From IMG/VR virus record IMGVR_UViG_3300047319_000349, positions 1-24,196 of that record: 24,196 nt of DNA. One strand, 5' to 3'. The notes beneath the pieces are model-generated. The model searched no databases and had not been told where the DNA came from. It worked only from the letters and a program-made list of their open reading frames with translations. Both the position numbers and the translations under genes were made by a program. Position 1 is the stretch's first letter, and every line of letters begins with the position of its first letter. Source of the DNA: a virus. Shown piece by piece: positions 3,606 to 24,196 of the stretch.

Positions 3606-3700
3606 CTTTCAGGCGCAGCCTAGGCTAGCTCCCGAACGCCGACTCGTCATCGGCCCGGCTGCGCTCCCGATTCGCAGACGAACCTTTGACGGGAGGTGTT

Positions 3701-4156
3701 ATGGCTGAAATTCGTTTAGCGCGAGGGCAGGTTTCGATTGTCGATGACGGGCTTGTTGCAAAACTCTCGCCTTACCAGTGGTACCTCAGCAACAAGGGCT
3801 ACGTTGTTGCTAGGGCGGGTGGCAGGAAACTAATTTTGATGCACCGCGTGATCGCCGCTCCTGGCGAACAGCAAGTTGTTGATCACAGGAATGGGGATAA
3901 GTTGGATAACCGCCTGAGCAACTTGCGCGCGTGTAGTCGTGCAGAAAACGCGCGCAATAGGAAAATGCACGAAAACAACCGGTGCGGAACCAAAGGCGTC
4001 TACGCTGACATCACGAAAAAAGTGACACGCTACCGCGCACAAATTCGAGTCGATGGAAAGAAGATTTCGCTTGGCTCATTTCCAAGCCTGATAGACGCCG
4101 AACACGCCTACAAGGTGGCTTCTGCCAAGTACCACGGAAACTTTGGTCGAGCCTGA
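3701..4156 (+). CDS. Free-standing HNH homing-type endonuclease with an AP2-like DNA-binding domain
   Basis: The start at 3701 has GGGAGG 4 nt upstream (3691-3696) and gives 151 residues. The central part is an HNH nuclease fold: MHRVI (47-51), VVDHRNGDKLDNRLSNLRAC (59-78, with His62, Asn70 and Asn74) and RAENARNRK (80-88). The C-terminal part (about 97-148, GTKGVYADI, YRAQIRVDGKKISLGSF, AEHAYKVA) is an AP2-type DNA-binding domain. This combination is typical of homing endonucleases that cut allelic sites lacking the gene and spread by repair. Base composition is clearly more AT-rich than the neighbours, with AAA, AAT and TTG codons that are rare elsewhere here, which suggests separate acquisition. 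HNH genes beside terminases can also help packaging, but the AP2 domain favours a mobile gene. Confidence 0.88.
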   Translation: MAEIRLARGQVSIVDDGLVAKLSPYQWYLSNKGYVVARAGGRKLILMHRVIAAPGEQQVVDHRNGDKLDNRLSNLRACSRAENARNRKMHENNRCGTKGVYADITKKVTRYRAQIRVDGKKISLGSFPSLIDAEHAYKVASAKYHGNFGRA

Positions 4157-4678: not shown

Positions 4679-6167
4679 ACAGGCCGCCGGCGTGCTGCTC
4701 GAGCGCCGCAACGCGCGCCGCGACTTGGTTGCCTTTGCCTCGCGCGTGCCAGTCCCGGGATCACCAACCGACGACGCCGACGACGCAGCGGCGATCCCGT
4801 TGATCGAGAGCCAGCAGGCCGTGCACCACCAGCTGATCCTGCGCGAAATGCAGGCCTGTATGACCAAGCCACACGGCCGGCTGATGATCATGGCGCCGCC
4901 GGGCTCGGCCAAGAGCACCTACGCCACGGTGGTGGCGCCGACGTGGTTCCTTGGCCTGGAGCGCAACCGGCGCGTGATACTGGCCAGCTACGGTTCGGAC
5001 CTCGCCAGTCGTCACGGGCGCCGCACGCGCCAGCTGCTGCGCTCACCCGAGGCCGAGAGCATCCTGCAATGCGGCCTGCATCCCGAGTCGCGCTCGGCCA
5101 ACGAGTTCGCGCTGACCAATGGCAGCGAGTACATCGCCGGCGGCATCATGGCCGGCATGACCGGCAACCGCGCGCACGGCATCGTGCTGGATGACCCAAT
5201 CAAGGGCCGTGAGCAGGCCGACTCCGAGACCGTACGCAACAAGACCTTCGCCGCTTACGAGGACGACCTGCTCACGCGCCTGATCCCGGGCGGCTGGGTC
5301 GTGATCATCAACACCCGCTGGCACGAGGACGACGTGTGCGGGCGCATCCTGCCGGCCGACTGGGCCGGTCAGTCCGGCGATATCGAGTGCCGCGACGGCA
5401 ACGTGTGGCGCGTGCTTTGCCTGCAGGCGGACTGCCAGACCAACACCGACCCGCTGGGCCGCAAAGTGGGCGAAATGCTGTGGCCGGAGTGGTTCGACAA
5501 GAAGCACTGGGACCAGTTCAGGCTGAACCGTCGCACCTGGTCGAGCCTGTACCAGCAGCGCCCGGCGCCCGACGACGGGATCCTGTTCCGGCGCGACGAC
5601 ATGGGCACCTACGAGAAGATGCCGGGCAACCTGCGCATCATTGGCGGCTCCGACTATGCGGTCACGCCGGACGGCGGCGACTGGACCGAGCACGGGATCG
5701 TGGGCATTGCCGAAGACGGCACCTGGTACTTGCTCGACTGGTGGCGCGGCCAGGTCGGCCCTGAAGAATGGATCGAGCGCAAGATCGACATGATGATCCG
5801 CTGGTCACCGCTGGCATGGTTTGGCGAGGCTGGACCGATCCGCCGCGCTACCGAGGGCCGACTGCGCGCCCGCATGATCGACCGGCAGGCGAAATGCCGT
5901 ATCGAATGGCTGCCGTCCATCCAGGACAAGGCCACGCGCGCGCAAGCGACGATCGCGCAGGCTGGGATGGGCCGTCTGCTGTGGCCCAAAGCCGCGTGGG
6001 TGGCCGAGCTGCAGCGCCAGTGCCTGGTGTTCCCCGCCGGCTCACCCGACGACGGCGTCGACACACTGTCGATCATTGGCCGCGGCGCCGACACTCTGGG
6101 CAAAGCACTGAAACCAACGCCACCGAAACCACGACCACATGCCGCCCCCGGCGGCTGGATGGGATAA
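4662..6167 (+). CDS. terL: Terminase large subunit (packaging ATPase/nuclease)
   Basis: The 501-residue protein shows both expected domains. In the ATPase, Walker A is APPGSAKST (78-86, Lys84), Walker B is GIVLDDP (173-179), and a coupling-type INTRWHEDD follows (217-224). In the RNase H-like nuclease, Asp331 lies in GGSDYAV, Glu389 in WFGEAGP and the late acid pair in DDGVDTL (463-469); together these form the metal site that cuts concatemeric DNA. The enzyme pumps DNA into the prohead through the portal. The ATG at 4662 has AAGGACGG just upstream and overlaps terS. Length is normal for the family and no key residue is missing. Confidence 0.95.
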   Translation: MFLTPEQAAGVLLERRNARRDLVAFASRVPVPGSPTDDADDAAAIPLIESQQAVHHQLILREMQACMTKPHGRLMIMAPPGSAKSTYATVVAPTWFLGLERNRRVILASYGSDLASRHGRRTRQLLRSPEAESILQCGLHPESRSANEFALTNGSEYIAGGIMAGMTGNRAHGIVLDDPIKGREQADSETVRNKTFAAYEDDLLTRLIPGGWVVIINTRWHEDDVCGRILPADWAGQSGDIECRDGNVWRVLCLQADCQTNTDPLGRKVGEMLWPEWFDKKHWDQFRLNRRTWSSLYQQRPAPDDGILFRRDDMGTYEKMPGNLRIIGGSDYAVTPDGGDWTEHGIVGIAEDGTWYLLDWWRGQVGPEEWIERKIDMMIRWSPLAWFGEAGPIRRATEGRLRARMIDRQAKCRIEWLPSIQDKATRAQATIAQAGMGRLLWPKAAWVAELQRQCLVFPAGSPDDGVDTLSIIGRGADTLGKALKPTPPKPRPHAAPGGWMG

Positions 6168-6176
6168 GCACACACC

Positions 6177-8303
6177 ATGGCCGACAACAAAGACGACGAC
6201 CTGCATGCCGAGGGCTTGGAGCTCTACGACATTGCGATCGAGCGCGAGAGCGAGAACCGCCAGAACTACGCCGACGACGTGCGCTTCGCGCGCCTTGGCG
6301 AGCAGTGGCCGGAAGCGGTACGGCGCCAGCGCGAGCTCGACGGCCGCCCATGCCTGACCATCAACCGCCAGCCCGCGTTCATCCGCCAGGTCACCAACGA
6401 CGCGCGCCAGAACAAGCCCTCGATCAAGTTCCACGCGGTGGGTGACGGTGCCGACGAGTGGACCGCCAAGGTGCAGGACGGCTTGGTGCGCAACATCGAG
6501 ACCAGCAGCAACGCCGACGTGGCCTACGACACGGCGCTCGACAACGCGGTGACGGGCGGTTTCGGCTACTTCCGCATCGCCACCGACTACGCGGCCGACG
6601 ACGCCTTCGACCAGGACATCAAGATCGAGCGCATCGCCAACTCGCTGTCCGTGGTCCCGGATCCGTACTGCATGGACGCCGATTCGGCCGACTGGAACGA
6701 CGCGTGGGTCACCGACACCTACTCGATCGATGCCTTCAAGAAGAAGTGGCCGAAGGCCGAAGTGTCGAGCTTCGAAGGAGACCGCAAGGACGTCGCGCCG
6801 GGCTGGATGCAGGACGACGATATCCTGGTTGCCGAATGGTGGCGCCGGCGCGAGGTGGCGGCGACCCTGCTGCAACTGTCGAACGGCGAGGTCATGTTTG
6901 ACGAGCAGTACCAGACCGCCAAGCATCTGCTTGACGTGCAGGGCGTGAAGATCGCCGACAAGCGACCCACGCGCACGATGAAGGTCACGCAGCACATCAT
7001 GAACGGCTGCGAAATCATCGAGACCAACGAATGGGCCGGCAAGTACATCCCCATCGTGCCGGTGTACGGCGACGAGGTGATCATCGACGGCAAGCGCCAC
7101 CTCAAGTCCCTGATCCGCGACGCAAAGGACGCGCAGCGCATGCTGAATTACTGGCGCACCGCGAGCACCGAGTTGGTCGCGCTGGCGCCGAAAGCGCCGT
7201 GGGTGGGCCCGGTGGGCGCGTTCGCGAGCGATCCGAATTGGGCGACCGCGAACACCGTCAACCACCAGTATCTCGAGTTTGACGTGGTCGATGGCCAGGC
7301 GCCACCCCAGCGCCAACCCTTCGCGGGCCCGCCGGCTGGCGCGCTGCAGGAGGCGATGAACGCCAGCGACGACATGAAGTCGATCATGGGCCTGTTCGAT
7401 GCGTCGCTCGGCGCCCAGTCGAACGAGACCAGCGGCCGCGCGATCCTGGCACGCCAGCGCGAAGGTGACGTCAGCACGTTCAACTTCACCGACAACTTGT
7501 CGCGCGCGATCCGGCACGGCGGGCGCATCCTGGCCGACCTGATCCCCAAGGTGTATAGCACCCAGCGCATCATTCGGGTGATCGGCGAGGATGGCGGCAC
7601 CCAGAACGTGCCGATCAACCAGCAAACCGCCCCCATGCCCGACCACGCCAAAGAACTGGGCGAGCAGGCGCAGGGCATCGCGCATATCTACGATCTGACC
7701 AGCGGCAAGTACGATGTCACCTGCGAGAGCGGCCCGAGCTACACCACCAAGCGCGAGGAAGCCGCGGCGCAGATGACCGAATTCATGCGCGCGGTACCGA
7801 GCGCCGGCCAGGTCATGGGCGACCTGCTGGCCAAGAACCTCGACTGGCCGGGCGCGGACGAAATCGCCGACCGCCTCAAGCTGCTGCTGCCGCCCCAGGC
7901 GCAGGGCCAGAACCCGCAGCTGCAGCAGGCTCAGCAGCAAATGCAGGGCATGCAGCAGGCTATCGGGCACCTGCAGCAGCAGCTGGCCGACACCGCCAAG
8001 GACAAGGAAATCGAGGTGGCCAAAGTCAAGATCGACGCCTTCAACGCCGAGACCAACCGGCTGAAAGTGGTCGGCGCCGGCATGGGTCCGGAGCAGGTGC
8101 AGGCGCTGGTGATGCAGACGCTGCAGCAGGTTCTGGCCGCGCCGGACATCACCGGCCAGCAGCCGGGCGCCGCACCGCAGCAGCCACCGGCGCCGCCGCC
8201 AATGACGCCACCAGGCCCGCCGCCCGGACTCGAACAGCCTCACCCAACCGAACCGCCGCAAGGCGGTTTTTTTACGCCCGAAGCCGGGCCTCAACCGGAG
8301 TAA
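6177..8303 (+). CDS. P22-type portal protein
   Basis: At 708 residues this is close to the long P22 portal (about 725). The N-terminal part (about 20-110, with QWPEAVRRQRELDGRPCLTI then RQPAFIRQVTNDARQNKPSI) and the core (GGFGYFRIATDY about 127-138, VPDPYCMDADSADWNDAWV about 161-179, NYWRTASTELVALAPKAPWV about 324-343) match P22-type portals. A Gln-rich coiled segment (about 575-625) and a Pro-rich tail (about 660-700) follow, comparable to the barrel and tail of long portals. It forms the dodecameric ring that docks terminase and later the tail. It starts 9 nt after terL and ends 3 nt before the scaffold gene. Its last codons hold an intrinsic terminator. Confidence 0.92.
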   Translation: MADNKDDDLHAEGLELYDIAIERESENRQNYADDVRFARLGEQWPEAVRRQRELDGRPCLTINRQPAFIRQVTNDARQNKPSIKFHAVGDGADEWTAKVQDGLVRNIETSSNADVAYDTALDNAVTGGFGYFRIATDYAADDAFDQDIKIERIANSLSVVPDPYCMDADSADWNDAWVTDTYSIDAFKKKWPKAEVSSFEGDRKDVAPGWMQDDDILVAEWWRRREVAATLLQLSNGEVMFDEQYQTAKHLLDVQGVKIADKRPTRTMKVTQHIMNGCEIIETNEWAGKYIPIVPVYGDEVIIDGKRHLKSLIRDAKDAQRMLNYWRTASTELVALAPKAPWVGPVGAFASDPNWATANTVNHQYLEFDVVDGQAPPQRQPFAGPPAGALQEAMNASDDMKSIMGLFDASLGAQSNETSGRAILARQREGDVSTFNFTDNLSRAIRHGGRILADLIPKVYSTQRIIRVIGEDGGTQNVPINQQTAPMPDHAKELGEQAQGIAHIYDLTSGKYDVTCESGPSYTTKREEAAAQMTEFMRAVPSAGQVMGDLLAKNLDWPGADEIADRLKLLLPPQAQGQNPQLQQAQQQMQGMQQAIGHLQQQLADTAKDKEIEVAKVKIDAFNAETNRLKVVGAGMGPEQVQALVMQTLQQVLAAPDITGQQPGAAPQQPPAPPPMTPPGPPPGLEQPHPTEPPQGGFFTPEAGPQPE
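8251..8273 (+). terminator. Intrinsic terminator inside the 3' end of the portal gene
   Basis: A perfect 7-bp stem AACCGCC (8251-8257) with GGCGGTT (8262-8268), a GCAA tetraloop and a T run to 8273 lie within the portal reading frame, where they encode PPQGGFFTP, 30 nt before its stop. A second hairpin (GCCCG/CGGGC) follows at about 8276-8289. As DNA this is a textbook terminator, so either the late polymerase is resistant to it or it reduces scaffold and coat messages in cells without antitermination. Confidence 0.8.
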
Positions 8304-8306
8304 TGC

Positions 8307-9176
8307 ATGGAAGATGAACTGGAACAACCAGTGGAAACGCTGGATTCCGACGCCGCAGCCGCAACTGCCGCCGAGGAAACGGAGCAGCGGTTGCATGACG
8401 ACCAAACCGACGCGGACTCGCAAGAGCACACCGAAGAGGATGAGGAAGTCGAGATCGGCGATAAAAAGTTCGCCCTGCCCAAGAGTGCAGCCGAGAAGCT
8501 GAAGGCCGAGCGCCTGATGCAGGCCGACTACACCCGCAAGACGCAGGAAGTAGCGGAAGAGCGCAAGGCCGTCGCGGCCGAGCGCGAGCAGGCTAAGCAG
8601 TCCGCCGAGCAGCAACAGCAGTACCTGCAGGAAGTCGCCGAAGTGGTCGCGATCGACAAGCAGCTGGCCGAGTACGCGAAAGTGGATTGGCAAGCCTTCA
8701 GCGATCGAGACCCGGTCGGCGCACAGAAGTTGCATTTCCAGTACCAAGCGCTGCAAACCGAGCGCAACCAGGCAGTACAGAACGTCACGCAAAAACAGCA
8801 GCAGCATGCACTGGCCGAGCAGCAAACCCTTGCCAAGCAAGTCCAGGAAGCGGATGCGTACTTCAAGCGTGAAATTCCCGGCTGGTCCGACGAGCGCAGT
8901 ACGCGCTTGCAGAAGTTCGCCATCGAGCAAGGCATCCCCGCCGGCACGCTGGCGATGGCTGTCGTGAAGAACCCCGCCCTGGTGAAGGTTCTCCACAAGG
9001 CCGAACTGTACGACCAACTGGAAAAGAAGCAAGGCGCCAAGCCAAAGACCCCGCCGGCACCTCCTGCCCCGGTCACCCGCGTCAGCGCCTCGCGCGCTAC
9101 CGCGGCAAAGGACCCGGACAAGATGCCGATGGATGACTGGCTCAAGTGGCGCGAAGGCCAACGCAAGAAACGCTAA
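8307..9176 (+). CDS. Capsid scaffolding protein
   Basis: The 289-residue product lies between portal and coat, the standard scaffold position. The first 50 residues are very acidic (EEDEEVEIGDKKFALP at the end of that block). A long Gln/Glu/Ala-rich coiled coil runs about 60-185 (VAAEREQAKQSAEQQQQYLQ). Next comes a short folded part about 195-245 (FKREIPGWSDERSTRLQKFA), then a basic tail ending KWREGQRKKR, like the coat-binding C-terminal helix of P22 scaffold. The FKREIPGW block recurs in scaffolds of podovirus-type phages. It should guide coat assembly and leave the prohead before packaging. GGAG lies 6 nt before the ATG. Confidence 0.85.
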   Translation: MEDELEQPVETLDSDAAAATAAEETEQRLHDDQTDADSQEHTEEDEEVEIGDKKFALPKSAAEKLKAERLMQADYTRKTQEVAEERKAVAAEREQAKQSAEQQQQYLQEVAEVVAIDKQLAEYAKVDWQAFSDRDPVGAQKLHFQYQALQTERNQAVQNVTQKQQQHALAEQQTLAKQVQEADAYFKREIPGWSDERSTRLQKFAIEQGIPAGTLAMAVVKNPALVKVLHKAELYDQLEKKQGAKPKTPPAPPAPVTRVSASRATAAKDPDKMPMDDWLKWREGQRKKR

Positions 9177-9180
9177 CCCC

Positions 9181-9204
9181 AACCCGCTTCGGCGGGTTTT
9201 CATT
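9181..9204 (+). terminator. Intrinsic terminator between scaffold and coat genes
   Basis: A perfect 7-bp stem AACCCGC (9181-9187) with GCGGGTT (9192-9198) is capped by a TTCG tetraloop and followed by TTCATTT. It sits 4 nt after the scaffold stop and just before the coat ribosome-binding site (TGGAGAG, about 9207-9213). It could stop transcription or protect the coat message from 5' decay after processing. Confidence 0.75.
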
Positions 9205-9217
9205 TCTGGAGAGCTGC

Positions 9218-10414
9218 ATGCCAAATACCATCCTCACCCCCACCGCAGTGACCCGCGAAGCCCTCGCGGTGCTGCACCAGAAGCTGAACTTCATCGGCTC
9301 GATCAACCGCCAGTACGACAGCTCGTTCGCCAAGGACGGCGCAAAGATCGGCGACAGCCTGAAAATCCGCCTGCCGAACGAGTACGTCGTCCGCAACGGC
9401 ATCACCATGGTCGCCCAGGACACCATCGAGCAGAGCACGACCCTGCAGGTGGCCAACGTCAAAGGCGTCGACCTGAACTTCACGTCGCAGGAGCTGACGC
9501 TGTCGTTGCAGGACTTCAGCGACCGCATCATCGAGCCGGCCATGTCGGTGCTCGCCGCGAACATCGAGGCTGATGCGCTGTCGATGGGCCTGGACGTGTA
9601 CCAGATCGTCAACAACCTCGGCAGCGTGCTTGCGCTGAAGCCGGCGCTGCAGGCGCGCAAGGCGCTAACCGACGCGCTGGCGCCGGGCGCGAAGCGCAAC
9701 CTGCTGTTGAACACCCAGGACAATCTCGACTTCGTCGACGCGGTCAAGGGTCTGTTCCAGGCGTCGGACACGATCGCCAAGCAGTACCGCGAAGGCAAGG
9801 TCGGCTCCACGGCTGGCTTCGGCGACGTGTACGAGAACACGCTGCTCGGCTCGCAGCTGACCGGGACTGCGGCATCGGTCACCACCTACACCGTCAATGG
9901 TGCGGTAACGACCAACGCTTCGAATTCCGTTGTGGTGGCGGCCGGCGCGACGACCTTCAAAAAAGGCGACGTGTTCACCTCTGCCGGCACCAACCGCGTG
10001 CACCCGGAAACCAAGGCGGACACCGGCGTTGCCCAGCAGTTCGTCGTTACCGCCGATTATGCCGGCGGCGCCGGCACGCTGCAGTTCTCGCCGGCCATCT
10101 ACACCTCGACCGGACGGCAGAACGTGACCTCCGGTGGTCTGCTGAATGGCGCCGCCATTACCAAGGTGGGCGGCGCGTCCGCGATCTACCGCCCCTCGCT
10201 GGCCTACCACGAGAACGCGTTCACCTTCGCCACCGCCGACCTGGTGCAGCCCAAGGGCGTGGACTTCGCCGCGCGCGAGGTGATGGACGGGATCTCGATG
10301 TCGATGGTGCGCCAGTTCCAGATCAGCGACCGCTCGTTCCCGTGCCGTATCGACGTGCTGTACGGCTTCAAGACCATCCGCCCGCAGCTGGCTTGCCGCA
10401 TCCTGAGCAACTAA
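9218..10414 (+). CDS. Major capsid (coat) protein, P22-type
   Basis: The 398-residue product is close in length to P22 gp5 (430) and shows its features. The N-terminal part reads TPTAVTREALAVLHQKLNFI (about 7-26). A gp5-like strand block follows (GDSLKIRLPNEYVV about 45-58), and the spine helix region carries EPAMSVLAANIEADAL (about 107-122). An inserted beta-rich domain (about 215-320, rich in Thr, Val, Gly and Ala) lies before the final A-domain segment ending FKTIRPQLACRILSN. It builds the icosahedral shell in the HK97 fold. The ATG at 9218 is chosen because TGGAGAG lies 4-5 nt upstream and the upstream part of the open frame crosses the previous terminator. Confidence 0.92.
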   Translation: MPNTILTPTAVTREALAVLHQKLNFIGSINRQYDSSFAKDGAKIGDSLKIRLPNEYVVRNGITMVAQDTIEQSTTLQVANVKGVDLNFTSQELTLSLQDFSDRIIEPAMSVLAANIEADALSMGLDVYQIVNNLGSVLALKPALQARKALTDALAPGAKRNLLLNTQDNLDFVDAVKGLFQASDTIAKQYREGKVGSTAGFGDVYENTLLGSQLTGTAASVTTYTVNGAVTTNASNSVVVAAGATTFKKGDVFTSAGTNRVHPETKADTGVAQQFVVTADYAGGAGTLQFSPAIYTSTGRQNVTSGGLLNGAAITKVGGASAIYRPSLAYHENAFTFATADLVQPKGVDFAAREVMDGISMSMVRQFQISDRSFPCRIDVLYGFKTIRPQLACRILSN

Positions 10415-10431
10415 ACCCATCGGTGCGACCG

Positions 10432-10462
10432 AGCCCCGCCAGCAGCAACGGCGGGGCTTTTT
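10432..10462 (+). terminator. Intrinsic terminator after the coat gene
   Basis: A perfect 9-bp stem AGCCCCGCC (10432-10440) with GGCGGGGCT (10450-10458), loop AGCAGCAAC, is followed by five T. With the similar hairpin before it, this brackets the coat gene with strong stem-loops, which may set coat message level and stability. Confidence 0.88.
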
Positions 10463-10476
10463 CATTGGAGAGCGAC

Positions 10477-10737
10477 ATGCAGGAATACCCGAAAGCGCTG
10501 TACCGCAAGAGTGAATGCGCCCGCGTCAACGACGCCGCCGAAGAAGAAGCGCAGCGCGCCGAAGGCTTCACCGACTGGCATACCGACCACAAAGCCATGC
10601 AGGGCGACGAAGGCGCGGACGATGCGGCGCCGACCCGCGACGACCTCAAGGCCAAGGCCAAGGAGCTCGGCATCGAGCACCCGGCCAACATCAGTACCGG
10701 CAAGCTGGCCGACCTGGTAGCTGCCGCCAAGGCGTAA
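10477..10737 (+). CDS. Small head-associated protein with an HeH/LEM-like C-terminal domain
   Basis: The 86-residue product starts with a segment (MQEYPKALYRKSECARVNDA) seen in small proteins next to phage coat genes. It ends in a helix-extended-helix-like module (about 52-86, TRDDLKAKAKELGIEHPANI then STGKLADLVAAAK), similar to the HeH/LEM or SAP-like fold of minor head proteins. It may bind DNA or the capsid vertex, but its role is not established. TGGAGAG lies about 4 nt before the ATG at 10477. The adaptor gene starts 2 nt after its stop. Confidence 0.7.
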   Translation: MQEYPKALYRKSECARVNDAAEEEAQRAEGFTDWHTDHKAMQGDEGADDAAPTRDDLKAKAKELGIEHPANISTGKLADLVAAAKA

Positions 10738-10739
10738 CG

Positions 10740-11393
10740 ATGCCGTTCTCCAACTACACGGAGCTGAAGGCAGCGCTCGGCGGGGCGGACGGCTGGCTGC
10801 ACCGCTCGAACCTGACCGCTCAGATTCCCGACTTCATCGCCCTGGCCGAGTCGCGCATCAACCGTCTGGCGCGCGTGCGCACGATGGAGATCGAGGCGCC
10901 GCTGGTGATGACGGTGAATTCGCGCGTGATCGCGCTGCCGGCCGGTTTCAGCGTGCCGCTTGCGGTGTGGCTGGAGAGCGTACAGCCGCGCCAACAGCTC
11001 ACGGCCGTGGTCCCGGAAAGCCTGTCGGTGACGACTGCCCCGGGTATGCCGCACTTCTGGGCCATCGACGGCGACAACCTCGCGTTCGAGCGGCCAGCCG
11101 ACAGTGCCTACCCGGTCACGCTGCGCTACAGCGGCAACTTCACGCTGTCCGACGCCGCCCCGACGAACGCGGTGCTGACGAACTACCCGGACCTGTACCT
11201 GCATGGCGCCCAACTCGCAGCGGCGCTGTACACCCGCAACCCCGATCAGGCCACGCTCTGCAAGCAGCTGTTTGACGAGGCCGTCCGGGAAATGAACCAG
11301 AACGAAAGCCGCGTGCGCGCCGCTGCGCCGCTTCGCACCGAGCTTGCCCACATGGTCGGCTGCCGCAGCTCCGGCATCTACAGGGGATATTGA
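10740..11393 (+). CDS. Head-to-tail adaptor (tail accessory) protein
   Basis: The 217-residue protein matches a common podovirus/siphovirus adaptor family: YTELKAALGGADGWLHRSNL (about 6-25), IPDFIALAESRINRLARVR (about 28-46), a beta-rich middle (VIALPAGFSVPLAVWLESV) and a helical end with NYPDLYLHGAQLAAALYTR (about 147-165). Such proteins bind under the portal after packaging and carry the tail, the role P22 gp4 plays. Family and neighbours agree; I cannot tell which adaptor subfamily it is. Its ATG begins 2 nt after the previous stop. Confidence 0.78.
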   Translation: MPFSNYTELKAALGGADGWLHRSNLTAQIPDFIALAESRINRLARVRTMEIEAPLVMTVNSRVIALPAGFSVPLAVWLESVQPRQQLTAVVPESLSVTTAPGMPHFWAIDGDNLAFERPADSAYPVTLRYSGNFTLSDAAPTNAVLTNYPDLYLHGAQLAAALYTRNPDQATLCKQLFDEAVREMNQNESRVRAAAPLRTELAHMVGCRSSGIYRGY

Positions 11394-11394
11394 C

Positions 11395-11742
11395 ATGCCA
11401 CTCGAACCCTCCGTCACCTACCTCAACGACTTGAACCCGGCGTGGCCGACCGGCGCCGACCCGAAGAGCGAGGGCGACGACCACACACGACGGATCAAGT
11501 CCGCGCTGAAAGCCTCATTCCCGAACATCGGCGGCGTGATGCCGGTTGCGCACGACCAGGTCGCGTCGAAAAACGATATCGCGCAGGCGCAGTTCCAGAC
11601 CGTGCTCCCAGCACAGCCCGGCGGCACGATCACCTACCAGCTTGTGACCGTCGGCGGCTCCGCGAACTGGCAGCCGAAAACCGCGATCTTCGACGACAGC
11701 ACGAAGCTCGCGCAGGCCCACGCAACCGCCCTCTCTTTCTAA
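11395..11742 (+). CDS. Short fibre-module protein (tail-fibre N-terminal-like)
   Basis: At 115 residues it begins with LNDLNPAWPTGADPKSEGDD and continues RRIKSALKASFPNIGG. This is the attachment module usually found at the N-terminus of much longer phage tail fibres. Here it stands alone, followed by separate small proteins, so the fibre may be built from several polypeptides or the gene may have been split. Residues 70-100 form a short beta segment (GGTITYQLVTVGGSANW). It starts 1 nt after the adaptor stop. It is structural by context; the precise role is unproven. Confidence 0.7.
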   Translation: MPLEPSVTYLNDLNPAWPTGADPKSEGDDHTRRIKSALKASFPNIGGVMPVAHDQVASKNDIAQAQFQTVLPAQPGGTITYQLVTVGGSANWQPKTAIFDDSTKLAQAHATALSF

Positions 11743-11750
11743 GGACCACC

Positions 11751-12167
11751 ATGCCAAAGACCTTCACCGCGCCGTTCGCGCAATCGCCCAAGACCGCAAC
11801 CGCCGTCGTCACGGCTGCCGTCGGCAACCTCGGCACCGACGCGCCTACCGGCACCGTTCTGCTGATGACGGCAGGTACTGAGGGCGCGATCATGACGCGG
11901 CTGTGGGCCATTCCCCGCGCAACCGTGACGCCAAGCAGCCTGTTGCTGTTCATCAGCTCTGATGCGGGCGTCACTCAGCGGCTGAAAGATTCCGAGTCGA
12001 TGGCTTCGCAGACCGTGAGTACGACTGCTGCCATTGCCGAGACCACGTTCCCCAACTACTCCGAATCGCGCCCGCTGCGCCTTGGGGCGGGTGATCGCCT
12101 GTACGTTGGCACGCAGGTCGCGCAGGCGACGGGCATCCTCTTCAGCGCCGAATACACGGACTTCTGA
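11751..12167 (+). CDS. Small virion protein of the fibre cluster, unidentified family
   Basis: This 138-residue beta-rich protein has a Thr/Ala-rich start (MPKTFTAPFAQSPKTATAVV) and a middle with LLLFISSDAGVTQRLKDSES. It ends with GDRLYVGTQVAQATGILFSA, a jelly-roll-like strand pattern seen in small phage baseplate or fibre-tip proteins. I do not recognise a specific family. It lies 8 nt after the fibre-module gene with a weak AAGGA before the ATG, and its stop overlaps the next start as TGATG. A minor fibre or tip component is the likeliest role. Confidence 0.6.
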   Translation: MPKTFTAPFAQSPKTATAVVTAAVGNLGTDAPTGTVLLMTAGTEGAIMTRLWAIPRATVTPSSLLLFISSDAGVTQRLKDSESMASQTVSTTAAIAETTFPNYSESRPLRLGAGDRLYVGTQVAQATGILFSAEYTDF

Positions 12168-21601: not shown

Positions 21602-21814
21602 ATGCGCGCGCCATCCCCGCCATCCGGCCCGAGCCTGACCGACATCGTAGACGCTGCCGTCAAGGCGTCCCCGCCCGCCGCGGTCGTTCTGTGGAACAGG
21701 ATCGCGGAAATCCCGGCAGAAAAATGGCTCACCTACGCCCTCATCGGGTACACGCTGCTGCAGGCCCTCGTCCTTCTGCGCAAAGAGTTCTTCAAGCGTC
21801 GGGGGCGCAAGTGA
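21602..21814 (+). CDS. Holin-like small membrane protein
   Basis: The 70-residue product has a soluble N-terminal half (GPSLTDIVDAAVKASPPAAV), one hydrophobic segment (about 43-59, WLTYALIGYTLLQALVLL) and a strongly basic tail (RKEFFKRRGRK). One membrane span plus a positive C-terminus fits a small holin or lysis-linked membrane protein. Its place directly before the endolysin, which it overlaps as GTGA, is the main support. GAAAGGAC lies just before the ATG. It has only one clear span, so it is not a typical class I or II holin. Confidence 0.62.
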   Translation: MRAPSPPSGPSLTDIVDAAVKASPPAAVVLWNRIAEIPAEKWLTYALIGYTLLQALVLLRKEFFKRRGRK

Positions 21815-22281
21815 AACCTGACGACTTCCTCGACCAGATCCTGCCGGCCGCGCGCGCCTGCCAGCGCCAGACCGGCATCCCGGCCAGCTTCACGCTGGCG
21901 CAGGCGGCGCTCGAATCCGCCTGGGGCGCGTCGCTGCTCGCCAAGCGCGGCTGCAACCTGTTCGGCGTGAAGGCTGACCGCGCATGGACCGGCCCGACGA
22001 TCAGCATGGACACCGGTGAGGTCATCAACGGCAAGCGGGTGATGGTGCCGGCCGCGTGGCGCTGCTACCCCGACTGGCTGGCCTGCCTGCTCGACCGCGC
22101 CGCCTTCTTCAAGGCGAATTCGCACTACGCCAAGTGTTTCGACTGCCTGACCGGCGAAGGATGGGCGCGCGCCGTGCAAGCCGCCGGCTACGCGACCGAT
22201 CCGGACTATGCCGACAAGATCATCGGCGTGATTCGTGGCCGCAACCTCACCCGCTTTGACCAACCCAAGGAGCAACCATGA
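21811..22281 (+). CDS. Endolysin, GH73 (FlgJ-type) N-acetylglucosaminidase
   Basis: Starting at GTG 21811 the product has 156 residues and no signal peptide, so release needs the holin. Residues 21-60 (TGIPASFTLAQAALESAWGA then SLLAKRGCNLFGVKAD) are the signature of the glucosaminidase/FlgJ fold; Glu35 in ALESAWG is the expected catalytic acid. SDS-type elements further on (YPDWLACLLDRAAFF about 88-102, WARAVQAAGYATDPDYADKI about 119-138) match the family's C-terminal lobe. It should cut glycan strands of peptidoglycan at lysis. The stop overlaps the lipoprotein start as ATGA. Confidence 0.9.
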   Translation: MKPDDFLDQILPAARACQRQTGIPASFTLAQAALESAWGASLLAKRGCNLFGVKADRAWTGPTISMDTGEVINGKRVMVPAAWRCYPDWLACLLDRAAFFKANSHYAKCFDCLTGEGWARAVQAAGYATDPDYADKIIGVIRGRNLTRFDQPKEQP

Positions 22282-22547
22282 AGAAAACCCTCATCATCGC
22301 GTGCGCCATGCTGCTCACCGGCTGCGCCAGCTTCCAGCAGGCCCTGGGGGGCTACGAGTCGGCCGCCGCCATGTCGCTCGACGCCAGCAACGACAACGTG
22401 GTCAAGGTGTGGCGCTACCAGGCCTGCTCGACGCCGATCTCGGCCGTTATCCGCAATCCGGACATCGTGCCGGCGATCAAGGCGCTGTGCATGCCGTCCG
22501 GCGCGGCCAGCCCGATCACGCTGCTCGACGCGGCGCAGACGAAATGA
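22278..22547 (+). CDS. Small lysis-region lipoprotein
   Basis: The 89-residue product has a lipoprotein signal: MKKTLIIACAMLLTGCASFQ, with lipobox LTGC and Cys16 as the lipidated residue. The mature part has two more Cys (ACSTP about 49-53, LCMPSG about 70-75), a likely disulfide, and is not Pro-rich. It is therefore unlike a classical Rz1 spanin, and no inner-membrane Rz partner is seen. Small lipoproteins of this type occur after endolysins in phages of beta- and gammaproteobacteria, but their role is unclear. AAGGAG lies 5 nt before the ATG. It overlaps genes on both sides by 4 nt. Confidence 0.78.
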   Translation: MKKTLIIACAMLLTGCASFQQALGGYESAAAMSLDASNDNVVKVWRYQACSTPISAVIRNPDIVPAIKALCMPSGAASPITLLDAAQTK

Positions 22548-22927
22548 GCGGCTTCCTCTCCCCCTGCGTGCTTGAGATAGCGGACGATCAGGACGACGGC
22601 CAGTGGATCCTGCGCGCGCCGCTGATCTACCAGTCCGACGTGGCGCGGCAGACGTTCACGGTGCCGGCCGGCTTCCAGACCGATCTGGCCAGCGTGCCGC
22701 GGATCCCGCTGATCTACGACCTGGTCGGCGACACTTCGCGCAAGGCTGCCGTCGTACACGATTGGCTTTACGGTGCCGGGCTGGTGCCGCGCGACGTCGC
22801 TGACGCGGTGCTGCGCGAGGCCAGCCAGGTTACCGGCGTTCCCGGCTGGCGCAGATGGCTCATGTATCTTGGGGTGCGCATCGGCGGGGCCTCACACTAC
22901 ACTGCCGCACCGGCAGCCGCCGCGTAA
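22544..22927 (+). CDS. DUF1353 family protein
   Basis: The 127-residue protein carries the DUF1353 hallmarks: FTVPAGFQTDLASVPRIP (about 39-56), then KAAVVHDWLYGAG (about 67-79) with the conserved His-Asp-Trp, then DVADAVLREA (about 84-93). The family is widespread in phages near tail or lysis genes; its function is unknown to me. The conserved Asp and His residues could form a metal or catalytic site, but that is inference. It is the last + strand gene of the late operon and converges on the tae4-like gene 13 nt away. Confidence 0.82.
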   Translation: MSGFLSPCVLEIADDQDDGQWILRAPLIYQSDVARQTFTVPAGFQTDLASVPRIPLIYDLVGDTSRKAAVVHDWLYGAGLVPRDVADAVLREASQVTGVPGWRRWLMYLGVRIGGASHYTAAPAAAA

Positions 22928-22932
22928 AACCC

Positions 22933-22956
22933 CTGGCCGACTAGTTCAGCGGCCAG
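22933..22956 (-). terminator. Hairpin between convergent genes, weak minus-strand terminator
   Basis: CTGGCCG (22933-22939) pairs perfectly with CGGCCAG (22950-22956). On the minus strand it is followed by GGGGTTTTA, a short T run, and it overlaps the stop region of the tae4-like gene. On the plus strand there is no T run. It may end the minus-strand cassette. Confidence 0.45.
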
Positions 22957-23417
22957 AACCATACCTCCCGCGCCGACCAGTAGCAGGCGCCCAAACACCT
23001 CAGATCGTTATGGTTGGCCGGCTCGACCAGGTCGATATGCCCCTGGGTGTCGGTCGCGCTATTCAGTCCGAAAAATGACACGATGCCGCGACGCATCCCG
23101 ATCTTCATGCTCGCTTCGTAGCCGCTGGCGTAGACCTCCGGCTTGCCAATGTGGTGCATCAGGAACTCGGACAGCCGCCGCTGGCTCTGCTCGACCCGCC
23201 TCCCCTTCCATTTCCCCGCCTTGATCGTCATGTGCCCCGGAAACGGCTGAATCCCGGCGCCCAGCAGGGCGATGCTGACCCGCACGGCGCAGGTATTCTG
23301 CATGTACATGTTCTCAGCGTACTCCGGATGGCCGATGCTCGAGTACAGTGCTGCAGCATCCATCCCGGATTTCTTCGGGTAGTTGGCGGCCAGGACCGCG
23401 TAGATAGGCGTAGTCAT
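22941..23417 (-). CDS. tae4: Tae4-family type VI amidase effector (peptidoglycan amidase)
   Basis: From ATG 23417, which overlaps the stop of the gene before it as ATGA, the product has 158 residues, the usual Tae4 length. MYMQNTCAVRVSIALLGAGI (38-57) holds the family's catalytic Cys (Cys43). TQGHIDLVEP (125-134) holds the catalytic His (His127), and Asp138 with a C-x3-C pair (Cys141, Cys145) follows, matching the rest of the Tae4 active site and a possible disulfide. SQRRLSEFLMHHIGKPEVY (78-96) is also Tae4-like. The family is an NlpC/P60-like amidase that cuts the D-Glu to meso-DAP bond in the target periplasm. No signal peptide is present, as expected for T6SS cargo. A second lysis enzyme is an alternative role. 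Confidence 0.88.
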   Translation of the reverse strand: MTTPIYAVLAANYPKKSGMDAAALYSSIGHPEYAENMYMQNTCAVRVSIALLGAGIQPFPGHMTIKAGKWKGRRVEQSQRRLSEFLMHHIGKPEVYASGYEASMKIGMRRGIVSFFGLNSATDTQGHIDLVEPANHNDLRCLGACYWSAREVWFWPLN

Positions 23418-23800
23418 TGGCAGCACCCATCAGGTGGGCAGGGCCACTTGTCCTGCCAGATTTCGACTACCAGCTGCGCAGCGTTGCGCTTGAGCTGGTT
23501 CTGCGGCAGGGCGCGCAGCCCGGCTAGTATCCGGGTCTGCAGGTCGACCGGGCGCTGCTTCGGCAGCGGTTTGCCGTTCGGGCCGGCGTAACACCAATCC
23601 TTGTGCTCGGTGGCGTCGTGCACGCCCTGTATGTAGTCCTCGGCGGCGGCCGCCTCAGTCGGGCGGCCGAGCCTTTGCAGGAGCTGAGCGCCGGTCAACC
23701 AGGGCGCGGCAGCCGGGATCGGCTTGACGGGCAAATGCTCATCGTCGGCGTAGGCGGCTGAGGCCAGCGCCAGAGCAAGAAAGCAGGAAACGTGTCGCAT
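23414..23800 (-). CDS. Tai4/Rap1a-family periplasmic immunity protein
   Basis: The 128-residue product has a signal peptide (MRHVSCFLALALASAAYADD, cleavage likely after Ala18), so it acts in the periplasm. The core shows the Rap1a/Tai4 pattern: EDYIQGVHDATEHKDWCYAG (about 54-72), a middle helix QTRILAGLRALP, then NAAQLVVEIWQDKWPC (106-121), with Cys70 and Cys121 as the likely conserved disulfide. It precedes the Tae4 gene and overlaps its start, the usual immunity-effector linkage. It should bind and block the amidase in the lysogen's own periplasm. AAAGGA lies 7 nt before the ATG. The leader can fold into a hairpin that includes the start codon. Confidence 0.82.
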   Translation of the reverse strand: MRHVSCFLALALASAAYADDEHLPVKPIPAAAPWLTGAQLLQRLGRPTEAAAAEDYIQGVHDATEHKDWCYAGPNGKPLPKQRPVDLQTRILAGLRALPQNQLKRNAAQLVVEIWQDKWPCPPDGCCQ

Positions 23801-23827
23801 GGGTATCCTTTCTCTGGAATACCCATG
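23798..23827 (-). promoter_or_regulatory. Perfect 9-bp inverted repeat over the immunity gene start
   Basis: CATGGGTAT (23798-23806) and ATACCCATG (23819-23827) form a perfect 9-bp inverted repeat with a 12-nt spacer. On the minus-strand transcript the 3' arm contains the ATG start and the loop contains the AAAGG ribosome site. It could act as an RNA hairpin limiting translation or as a protein-binding operator. Confidence 0.65.
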
Positions 23828-23985
23828 ATGTGCGAGCTGTAGAGCGTGCTACTGCGGGCGCGCAAGAGTGCGTTTGAGGCAATGCCGGGAAGCGAGCTCA
23901 GCGGATAAGGGTGATCGAATTGCCGTCCTGATAATGACAGCTTTTTGCCAGCCTACCTCTCGAAACCCGCATGGATGCCCATTTA
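23828..23985. other. Prophage end region without a recognised gene
   Basis: About 158 nt between the immunity gene leader and the attachment site. I see no credible gene and no strong promoter for the minus-strand cassette. A TTGCGC with TACAGC at 18-bp spacing on the minus strand is the best, weak, candidate. Integrase arm sites could lie here but cannot be recognised without the integrase. Confidence 0.4.
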
Positions 23986-24015
23986 CGGAGGGTTCGATTC
24001 CCTCCGCCTCCACCA
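23986..24015 (+). other. Right attachment site: 3' end of a tmRNA-like (ssrA) gene
   Basis: The segment folds as the end of a tRNA-like molecule: T-stem GAGGG/CCCTC (23988-23992, 24000-24004) with loop TTCGATT, then the acceptor 3' strand CGCCTCC, discriminator A and encoded CCA (24013-24015). The acceptor sequence would pair with GGGGGCG through a G3-U wobble, the alanine identity feature of tmRNA. Only this 3' part is present, without the rest of an RNA gene upstream, as expected when a phage rebuilds the gene end at the other junction. A tRNA is the alternative; the core may extend a few nt further left. Confidence 0.75.
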
Positions 24016-24047
24016 CCATACAATCTGTAGTGATCCAAGCAAGTCCA

Positions 24048-24073
24048 AAAACCCGCCTTCGAGCGGGTTTTTT
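24048..24073 (+). terminator. Intrinsic terminator after the tmRNA-like 3' end
   Basis: A perfect 9-bp stem AAAACCCGC (24048-24056) with GCGGGTTTT (24063-24071), loop CTTCGA, ends in a run of six T. It lies about 33 nt after the CCA end and is likely the original terminator of the host RNA gene. Confidence 0.88.
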
Positions 24074-24108
24074 GCTGTGTGACCGGCGCTCGGTCAGAAG
24101 ACAGGCTT

Positions 24109-24137
24109 TTGACCTTTCTCAACACCGTAACTATAAT
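24109..24137 (+). promoter_or_regulatory. Strong sigma-70 promoter of the flanking host gene
   Basis: TTGACC (24109-24114) and a perfect TATAAT (24132-24137) are separated by exactly 17 bp. The predicted start is near 24144, about 30 nt before the ATG at 24174. Confidence 0.82.
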
Positions 24138-24145
24138 TCAGTTAC
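24127..24145. promoter_or_regulatory. Inverted repeat over the -10 box, possible operator
   Basis: GTAACT (24127-24132) and AGTTAC (24140-24145) form an inverted repeat, with 7 bp between arms, that spans the -10 element. A repressor bound here would block the promoter; autoregulation by the downstream gene is possible but untested. Confidence 0.5.
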
Positions 24146-24173
24146 AGTATAGAGATTCAGCGAGTCTAACCCC

Positions 24174-24196
24174 ATGTCCAAACACAGCAAGGCGTT
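24174..24196 (+). CDS. Start of a host gene, cut by the window edge
   Basis: An ATG at 24174 opens MSKHSKA before the window ends. The strong promoter upstream and the lack of a competing start support it. Only seven residues are visible, so no family can be given. A regulator that controls itself through the operator-like repeat is a guess. Confidence 0.5.

What the first reader, a model, noticed from the sequence alone, without database searches (positions are those of the whole stretch)
22941..23800. Tae4-Tai4 type VI amidase effector-immunity pair carried as prophage cargo
Seen: minus-strand genes, an exported Cys-containing immunity-type protein followed with ATGA overlap by an amidase with Cys43, His127, Asp138 and a CxxxC pair. 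Known: Tae4 effectors cut peptidoglycan peptides in rival cells after T6SS delivery; Tai4 (Rap1a/Tai family) blocks them in the periplasm. Inference: the phage gives its lysogen a contact weapon plus resistance to related Tae4 attacks, or the pair keeps the prophage in the population because loss of immunity is costly. The cassette is antisense to the late operon and next to the attachment site, as expected for lysogen-expressed cargo. No Hcp, VgrG or PAAR gene is in the window, so delivery would rely on the host.
Basis: partly seen in the sequence, partly recalled or inferred. Interest (0 to 1): 0.85.

Follow-up and report, generated by a model that had tools for sequence, protein, structure and literature searches.

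The report
Prophage-borne T6SS toxin and antidote
A virus integrated in a bacterium carries a cell-wall-cutting toxin of the kind fired by the type VI secretion machine, together with its antidote, and several other phages of related bacteria carry the same pair, which suggests that phages can re-arm their hosts for fights between bacteria.

Summary
Window 22941-23800 (-) encodes a Tae4 amidase (PF14113, E 1.5e-13) and, just upstream with an ATGA overlap, an exported Rap1a/Tai4 immunity protein (PF18602, E 6.9e-12), antisense to the end of a P22-like late operon and next to an attachment site at the 3' end of ssrA. One detail is wrong: the likely triad is C43-H127-D129 (Serratia/Agrobacterium type); D138 is kept in 4 of 41 homologues. 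New here: (1) in a Massilia-containing genus, 24 of 40 fetched homologous loci have hcp directly upstream (hcp-rap1a-tae4), tying this subfamily to T6SS; (2) the window and four further phage or prophage copies show no hcp, and both genes are under purifying selection (dN/dS 0.12-0.32); (3) the phage copies fall into about three Tae4 lineages and different phage types, yet the four with upstream sequence, plus one decayed copy beside a tRNA gene, share a leader with a stem-loop at the start codon, not seen in the other 40 loci that could be checked. Best reading: lysogen-benefit cargo that borrows the host's T6SS. Prophages with T6SS effector clusters are known (Ralstonia), so this is a variant of a known kind. 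Expression, secretion and killing are untested.

The parts
22941..23417 (-). tae4: 158-residue peptidoglycan amidase, no signal peptide seen; likely catalytic C43, H127, D129; CxxxC C141/C145
   Evidence: PF14113 and PDB Tae4/Ssp1 matches; residue counts in 41 homologues
23414..23800 (-). rap1a/tai4: 128-residue immunity protein with an N-terminal signal sequence (by eye, ..SAAYA-DD..); conserved C70 and C121
   Evidence: PF18602 match, PDB Tai4/Rap1a by sequence and by model; C70 in 43 and C121 in 42 of 43 rows
23798..23828 (-). stem-loop around the rap1a start: 11-bp stem, start codon in the 3' arm, ribosome-binding GAGAAAGGA mostly in the loop
   Evidence: fold -14.9 kcal/mol, z -4.24; same element in L003, L005, L080, L112
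23777..23910 (-). leader region -110 to +24 of the rap1a start, shared with other phage copies; role (promoter, regulator or attP arm) unknown
   Evidence: alignments
23933..23951 (.). 19-bp stretch shared (18 of 19) with the same side of the G298 prophage's att site, a possible attP arm
23986..24016 (+). 3' end of ssrA (tmRNA): attachment site at the phage-host junction
24017..24196 (+). host flank with the ssrA terminator and a sigma-70-like promoter facing away
21811..22281 (+). phage endolysin (glucosaminidase), end of the convergent late operon
   Evidence: PF01832 E 4.4e-32, PHROG endolysin 9.1e-51
22544..22927 (+). DUF1353 protein, last gene of the late operon
   Evidence: PF07087 E 5.5e-27

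Best explanation
A genuine Tae4-Rap1a (Tai4) effector-immunity pair carried as lysogen-benefit cargo. Shown by sequence: both memberships, kept catalytic and disulfide residues, purifying selection on both genes, position beside the att site, recurrence in other phages, and hcp-linked chromosomal relatives. Inferred: Tae4 stays harmless in the cytoplasm until the host's own T6SS loads it (most likely into an Hcp tube) and injects it into neighbours, where it cuts the D-Glu-diaminopimelate bond of peptidoglycan stems; Rap1a is exported to the periplasm and protects the lysogen against sister cells and against rivals with a related Tae4. The phage copies have no hcp and use their own leader instead, so they depend on the host for delivery.
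For: Family and structure matches. hcp directly upstream in 24 of 40 chromosomal-survey loci (one Hcp checked, PF05638 E 9.4e-37). Same pair in viral contigs L002, L003, L005 and in a 43.2-kb prophage of G298 with integrase, terminase and portal genes and a 29-bp ssrA repeat at both ends. dN/dS 0.117 and 0.208 (window/L002), 0.322 and 0.213 (L003/L005) for Tae4 and Rap1a. G298, the genome with the intact prophage, has a VipB gene.
Against: No promoter for lysogen expression was recognised. T6SS is no commoner in carriers than in non-carriers of the genus. The window's own host is unknown. Dependence on host Hcp is inferred. L002 is cut at the start of rap1a, so absence of hcp there is not seen. 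The Tae4 model has low confidence (mean pLDDT 63.9).
Confidence: 0.75

Rival explanations
1. Lysis accessory: Tae4 is a second cell-wall enzyme that leaves the cytoplasm through the holin at the end of the lytic cycle, and Rap1a holds back leaked enzyme until then.
For: It lies next to the lysis genes in the window, L002 and L003, cuts the right polymer by family, and a periplasmic inhibitor would fit timing control.
Against: It is antisense to the late operon in the window, L002, L003, L005 and the G298 prophage; these phages already have endolysins where checked (window, L002, L003); relatives are hcp-linked T6SS genes.
Confidence: 0.07
2. Immunity first: the phage keeps the pair mainly so that Rap1a shields the lysogen from Tae4 of neighbouring cells; Tae4 attack matters little.
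For: Related Tae4 genes are common around the host (28 of 62 genomes of the genus; PF14113 in 92 of 392 genomes of the family).
Against: Tae4 is at least as constrained as Rap1a in one phage pair (dN/dS 0.117 against 0.208) though not in the other (0.322 against 0.213); an orphan immunity gene would do, yet the window and the four other phage or prophage copies all keep Tae4.
Confidence: 0.1
3. Addiction or toxin-antitoxin module that punishes loss of the prophage.
For: Toxin and antidote are translationally linked (ATGA overlap).
Against: Tae4 has no signal sequence and its target lies in the periplasm, so a cell that loses the prophage should not be harmed by its own Tae4, except through T6SS hits from sister cells.
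Confidence: 0.05
4. Neutral passenger picked up near the att site.
For: One related copy (L008 = L112, Massilia terrae) is decayed.
Against: Purifying selection in two phage pairs and recurrence in different phage types.
Confidence: 0.03

Closest known systems
Ssp1-Rap1a of Serratia marcescens and Tae4-Tai4 of Agrobacterium tumefaciens (PMC3852654, PMC3533786, PMC6277958; passages read)
   Same: Same two Pfam families; Cys-His with Asp two residues after His; disulfide CxxxC in the enzyme; exported immunity protein with a conserved cysteine pair; in Serratia the genes flank hcp1.
   Different: Those lie in bacterial T6SS gene clusters; here the pair lies in a prophage with no T6SS gene near it.
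Tae4-Tai4 of Salmonella and Enterobacter
   Same: Same Pfam family; solved structures found by sequence and by model.
   Different: Much weaker similarity (E about 0.02 for the Salmonella entries), and their third catalytic residue is the Asp eleven after His (PMC6277958), which is not conserved in the present subfamily.
T6SS aux (vgrG-toxin-immunity) clusters in prophages of the Ralstonia solanacearum complex (PMC11481896; passages read)
   Same: Temperate phages carry T6SS toxin and immunity genes; the paper says that one such phage genome was sequenced from virions.
   Different: There myo-, sipho- and inovirus-type prophages carry aux clusters, and the main text has no occurrence of 'Tae4'; here a pair without vgrG or hcp sits in P22-like and HK97-type phages behind a shared leader.
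hcp-rap1a-tae4 units of Massilia-group chromosomes (found here)
   Same: Same protein subfamilies and same rap1a-tae4 order.
   Different: Translated directly behind hcp; lack the phage leader.

Membership tests
Tae4 (PF14113) | Profile match above the curated cut-off | tested here: met
   51.4 bits against 27
Tae4 (PF14113) | Catalytic Cys and His | tested here: met
   C43 and H127 in 41 of 41 homologues
Tae4 (PF14113) | Acidic third residue | tested here: met
   D129, as Asp135 of Ssp1 (PMC3852654); kept in 30 of 41, Ala in 10, Asn in 1
Tae4 (PF14113) | Cleaves D-Glu-diaminopimelate bond; T6SS-secreted | not testable with these tools
   Only indirect: hcp-linked relatives
Tae4 (PF14113) | Tae4 fold | tested here: inconclusive
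   Best structure hits are Tae4 (4bi3_A E 3.9e-9) but the model is weak: mean pLDDT 63.9, TM about 0.5
Rap1a/Tai4 (PF18602) | Profile match above the curated cut-off | tested here: met
   46.2 bits against 27.7
Rap1a/Tai4 (PF18602) | Helical fold of Rap1a/Tai4 | tested here: met
   Model pLDDT 77.7; the 7 PDB hits at E <= 0.001 are all Tai4 or Rap1a
Rap1a/Tai4 (PF18602) | Periplasmic export and disulfide | tested here: inconclusive
   Signal sequence by eye only; cysteine pair C70/C121 conserved
Rap1a/Tai4 (PF18602) | Binds and neutralises the cognate Tae4 | not testable with these tools
   No two-chain prediction available
T6SS effector encoded with delivery protein | Neighbouring hcp, vgrG or PAAR gene | tested here: not met
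   No Hcp hit in the window, L003, L005, G298 prophage region or L002 (upstream of L002 not seen). VgrG and PAAR were not searched for by profile in the window; none among the ten window proteins scanned
Temperate-phage cargo (moron) | Non-essential insert at a variable site next to att, opposite to the late genes | tested here: met
   Window, L003, L005 and G298 prophage; a sister phage without it was not found because related contigs end before the site or are distant
Temperate-phage cargo (moron) | Own promoter and lysogen expression | tested here: inconclusive
   No sigma-70-like site on the minus strand; expression not testable

The most novel reading that the evidence does not exclude
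Temperate phages of Massilia-group bacteria share a weapon slot next to the attachment site: a phage-only leader with a start-codon stem-loop and conserved signal-peptide start, behind which different lineages of T6SS toxin-antidote genes, stripped of hcp, have been exchanged between unrelated phages (P22-like and HK97-type). The leader would let genes that elsewhere are translated behind hcp be expressed alone, and be controlled by RNA folding or by a phage regulator.
Probability: 0.42. Interest if true: 0.65.

Novelty: new variant of a known kind. Interest (0 to 1): 0.52.

Why it matters
It links a common T6SS unit of Massilia-group bacteria (hcp-rap1a-tae4) with temperate phages that carry only toxin and antidote and must borrow the host's injection machine. 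This makes two questions directly testable: does lysogeny re-arm a bacterium against its own kin, and does the phage gain from it? The shared leader gives a handle for finding more phage-carried effectors and for asking how an hcp-coupled gene pair becomes independent.

Tried and rejected
T6SS enrichment among carriers: rejected as evidence. VipB is in 27 of 28 carriers and 30 of 34 non-carriers of the genus (carriers, VipB). The earlier count of 23 of 24 used only 24 of the 28. PF05954 hits in 24 of 24 say little, because the family also covers phage tail proteins.

Asp138 as catalytic: rejected (4 of 41).

Covariation as proof of an RNA stem-loop: not obtained. With five sequences, 175 to 454 of 500 shuffles reach the five measures. 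Cells paired are 87.3% against 30 to 50% when slid. Single folds: z -4.24, -6.09, -2.32, -4.77 and -4.79 for window, L003, L005, L080 and L112; for L005, 7 of 200 shuffles fold as well. My first fold of L112 used coordinates six bases off and showed no such stem; the corrected one did. A DNA operator would look the same. The palindrome occurs once in the window.

Leader in front of other genes: not found. Three viral contigs pattern scans gave only the L003 and L005 contigs. In 392 genomes of the family, 5 have a site with up to 2 mismatches; the two exact ones are the G298 prophage and the M. terrae copy, and the other three showed no Rap1a-like frame by eye. The pattern was drawn from these sequences, so exact matches are by construction. 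Over the longer leader (-110 to +24) the excess similarity is modest (59-69% against 52-59% for the rest, among the three lineages) and absent for the decayed M. terrae copy (52-62% against 52-65%); the signal is in the core -32 to +24.

GenBank phages: no match for window Tae4, L003 Tae4, window Rap1a or L078 Tae4.

Presence or absence in sister podoviruses: inconclusive. Six contigs matched one structural gene, none with the cassette, but they end before the site or are distant.

Literature: listings of nine searches showed no title or abstract on a Tae4-Rap1a pair in a phage. Passages, not whole texts, were read in seven papers. The library lacks most subscription journals, so absence from print is not shown.

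Full report
What is there. On the minus strand, 23800-23414 encodes a 128-residue protein and 23417-22941 a 158-residue protein; the stop of the first and the start of the second share ATGA. The first passes the Pfam Rap1a cut-off (46.2 bits against 27.7) and the second the Tae4 cut-off (51.4 against 27). By sequence, the nearest solved relatives of the enzyme are Serratia Ssp1 (4bi3, E 4.9e-24) and Agrobacterium Tae4 (6ijf_C, 3.2e-23); those of the partner are Tai4 and Rap1a. A model of Rap1a (mean pLDDT 77.7) finds the same structures. The Tae4 model is weak (63.9), although its best hits are Tae4.

Active site. Ssp1 uses Cys50, His133 and Asp135, whereas the Enterobacter and Salmonella enzymes use an Asp eleven residues after the His (PMC3852654 and PMC6277958, passages). 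In 41 full-length homologues C43 and H127 are invariant, D129 is kept in 30 (Ala in 10, Asn in 1) and D138 in 4. These 41 rows come from 47 loci: seven with fragments only were dropped, and one locus gave two rows. C141 is kept in 41 and C145 in 37; the equivalent pair forms a disulfide in Ssp1. Rap1a C70 and C121 are kept in 43 and 42 of 43.

Where it sits. The window is a 24,196-bp virus record classed as linear, with no host genome held. Its genes are those of a P22-like phage (portal E 4.2e-193, coat 9.2e-34), ending in a glucosaminidase endolysin, a small lipoprotein and a DUF1353 protein. The cassette converges on this operon. Beyond it, 23986-24016 is the 3' end of ssrA, followed by a terminator like the one behind ssrA in genome G318 (82% over 90 columns). 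I read this as a phage-host junction. The one sigma-70-like site in the region faces the host gene; none was found upstream of rap1a.

Other phages. Peptide-pattern scans of the viral collection gave three relatives: L002 (Tae4 80% identical), L003 (42%) and L005 (38%). Such scans find only relatives that share short stretches, so more may exist. All three have Rap1a directly upstream and late genes on the opposite strand. L003 shows integrase, tRNA-like piece, cassette and lysis genes in a row. L005 has the cassette beside a tRNA-His. A fourth copy lies in a bacterial genome, G298: intact ssrA, a tyrosine integrase (E 1.7e-14), terminase, an HK97-type portal (PF04860, 6.2e-71), then the cassette and a second ssrA end. 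The two ssrA ends share a perfect 29-bp repeat about 43.2 kb apart. Four late proteins of that prophage resemble L002 and none of the 19 window proteins used as queries matched near its cassette. Four protein searches of 50,697 GenBank phages found nothing.

Chromosomal relatives. In the genus of Massilia terrae, 28 of 62 genomes match the three-sequence Tae4 profile, with 52 matches. I fetched 40 regions; 10 weak matches (E 2e-9 to 5e-4) were not fetched, and two lay inside fetched regions. Of these 40, which include the G298 prophage and the decayed M. terrae copy, 37 have a Rap1a hit and 24 have an Hcp gene on the same strand directly upstream; the other 16 have no Hcp hit in the fetched stretch. 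One Hcp was checked by Pfam (PF05638, E 9.4e-37). The order hcp-rap1a-tae4 is the strongest evidence that this subfamily serves T6SS. Among the phage copies no Hcp hit appears in the window, L003, L005 or the G298 prophage region; L002 starts at rap1a, so its upstream side is unseen. T6SS is nearly universal in the genus (57 of 62), carriers or not (27 of 28 against 30 of 34), so it allows the mechanism without singling it out.

Selection. By a simple counting method dN/dS is 0.117 (Tae4) and 0.208 (Rap1a) for window against L002, and 0.322 and 0.213 for L003 against L005, with dS 0.6 to 1.3. Both genes are being kept.

The leader. In a quick tree of 41 Tae4 proteins the five phage copies need three changes of label, at least two of them forced by well-supported branches: window with L002 (support 100), L003 with L005 (87), and the G298 prophage on a long branch among hcp-linked copies (81). 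Yet window, L003, L005, the G298 prophage and a decayed copy beside a tRNA-Arg in M. terrae share an upstream element. From -32 to +24 of the Rap1a start, pairs from different lineages (window; L003/L005; G298) agree at 39 to 46 of 56 positions, while the rest of the cassette agrees at 52 to 59% of bases. Over the longer stretch the excess is modest, and for the decayed copy it is absent. The core is a stem-loop with the start codon in its 3' arm; all five fold better than the mean of shuffles, L005 least clearly. Its loop motif occurs in six of 47 loci, five distinct places, exactly these; L002 is cut off at that point, and the other 40 loci lack it. Covariation is not significant, so RNA control and a DNA operator both stay open.

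Interpretation. The simplest account is that hcp-rap1a-tae4 units of the host group gave rap1a-tae4 to phages, which express the pair from their own leader and rely on host Hcp. The phage gains if its lysogen wins or survives contact fights. Expression, secretion, killing and immunity are inferred from family knowledge, not shown. The bolder reading is that phages of this group share a slot next to the att site through which different toxin-antidote lineages pass, with the leader as the fixed part.

Relation to known work. Prophages that carry T6SS toxin clusters are documented in Ralstonia (PMC11481896, passages). What differs here is the enzyme family, the lack of a delivery protein, the P22-like and HK97-type carriers, and the shared leader. 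I therefore call it a new variant of a known kind.

Noticed in passing
L077 (G387:C33) 5076-9943, with L142 12145-19710: Apparent prophage remnant (tyrosine integrase, Toprim primase, Sf6-type small terminase, homologues of L003 and window structural genes) with a complete hcp-rap1a-tae4 unit behind a resolvase gene: a possible intermediate between chromosomal and phage forms.
   Followed up: partly
L078 (G366:C12), oriented 8198-12042: hcp-rap1a-tae4 lies in a 3.6-kb stretch flanked by a 90% identical direct repeat of about 270 bp that begins in the 3' end of ssrA: a small island at the same attachment site used by the G298 prophage.
   Followed up: partly
L083, L089, L101, L109: Four further Rap1a-Tae4 or hcp-Rap1a-Tae4 loci start within about 320 bp of a tRNA gene (Ser, Arg, Phe, His), suggesting that tRNA genes are a general landing site for this unit. 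Not tested against chance.
   Followed up: no
L097 (G393:C74): Two rap1a-tae4 pairs in tandem behind a single hcp; this genome has six matches to the profile.
   Followed up: no
L008 9645-10150 (= L112), Massilia terrae: Decayed cassette with the phage leader directly beside an intact tRNA-Arg, without other phage genes recognised nearby: probable remnant of a lost prophage.
   Followed up: partly
window 22278-22547 (+): Small lipoprotein-like gene between endolysin and DUF1353; residues 1-21 weakly match the Cor superinfection-exclusion PHROG (E 1.9e-4), perhaps only through the signal sequence.
   Followed up: no
window 3686-4156 (+): HNH_3 endonuclease (E 2.5e-10) near the terminase genes, possibly a homing endonuclease.
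   Followed up: no
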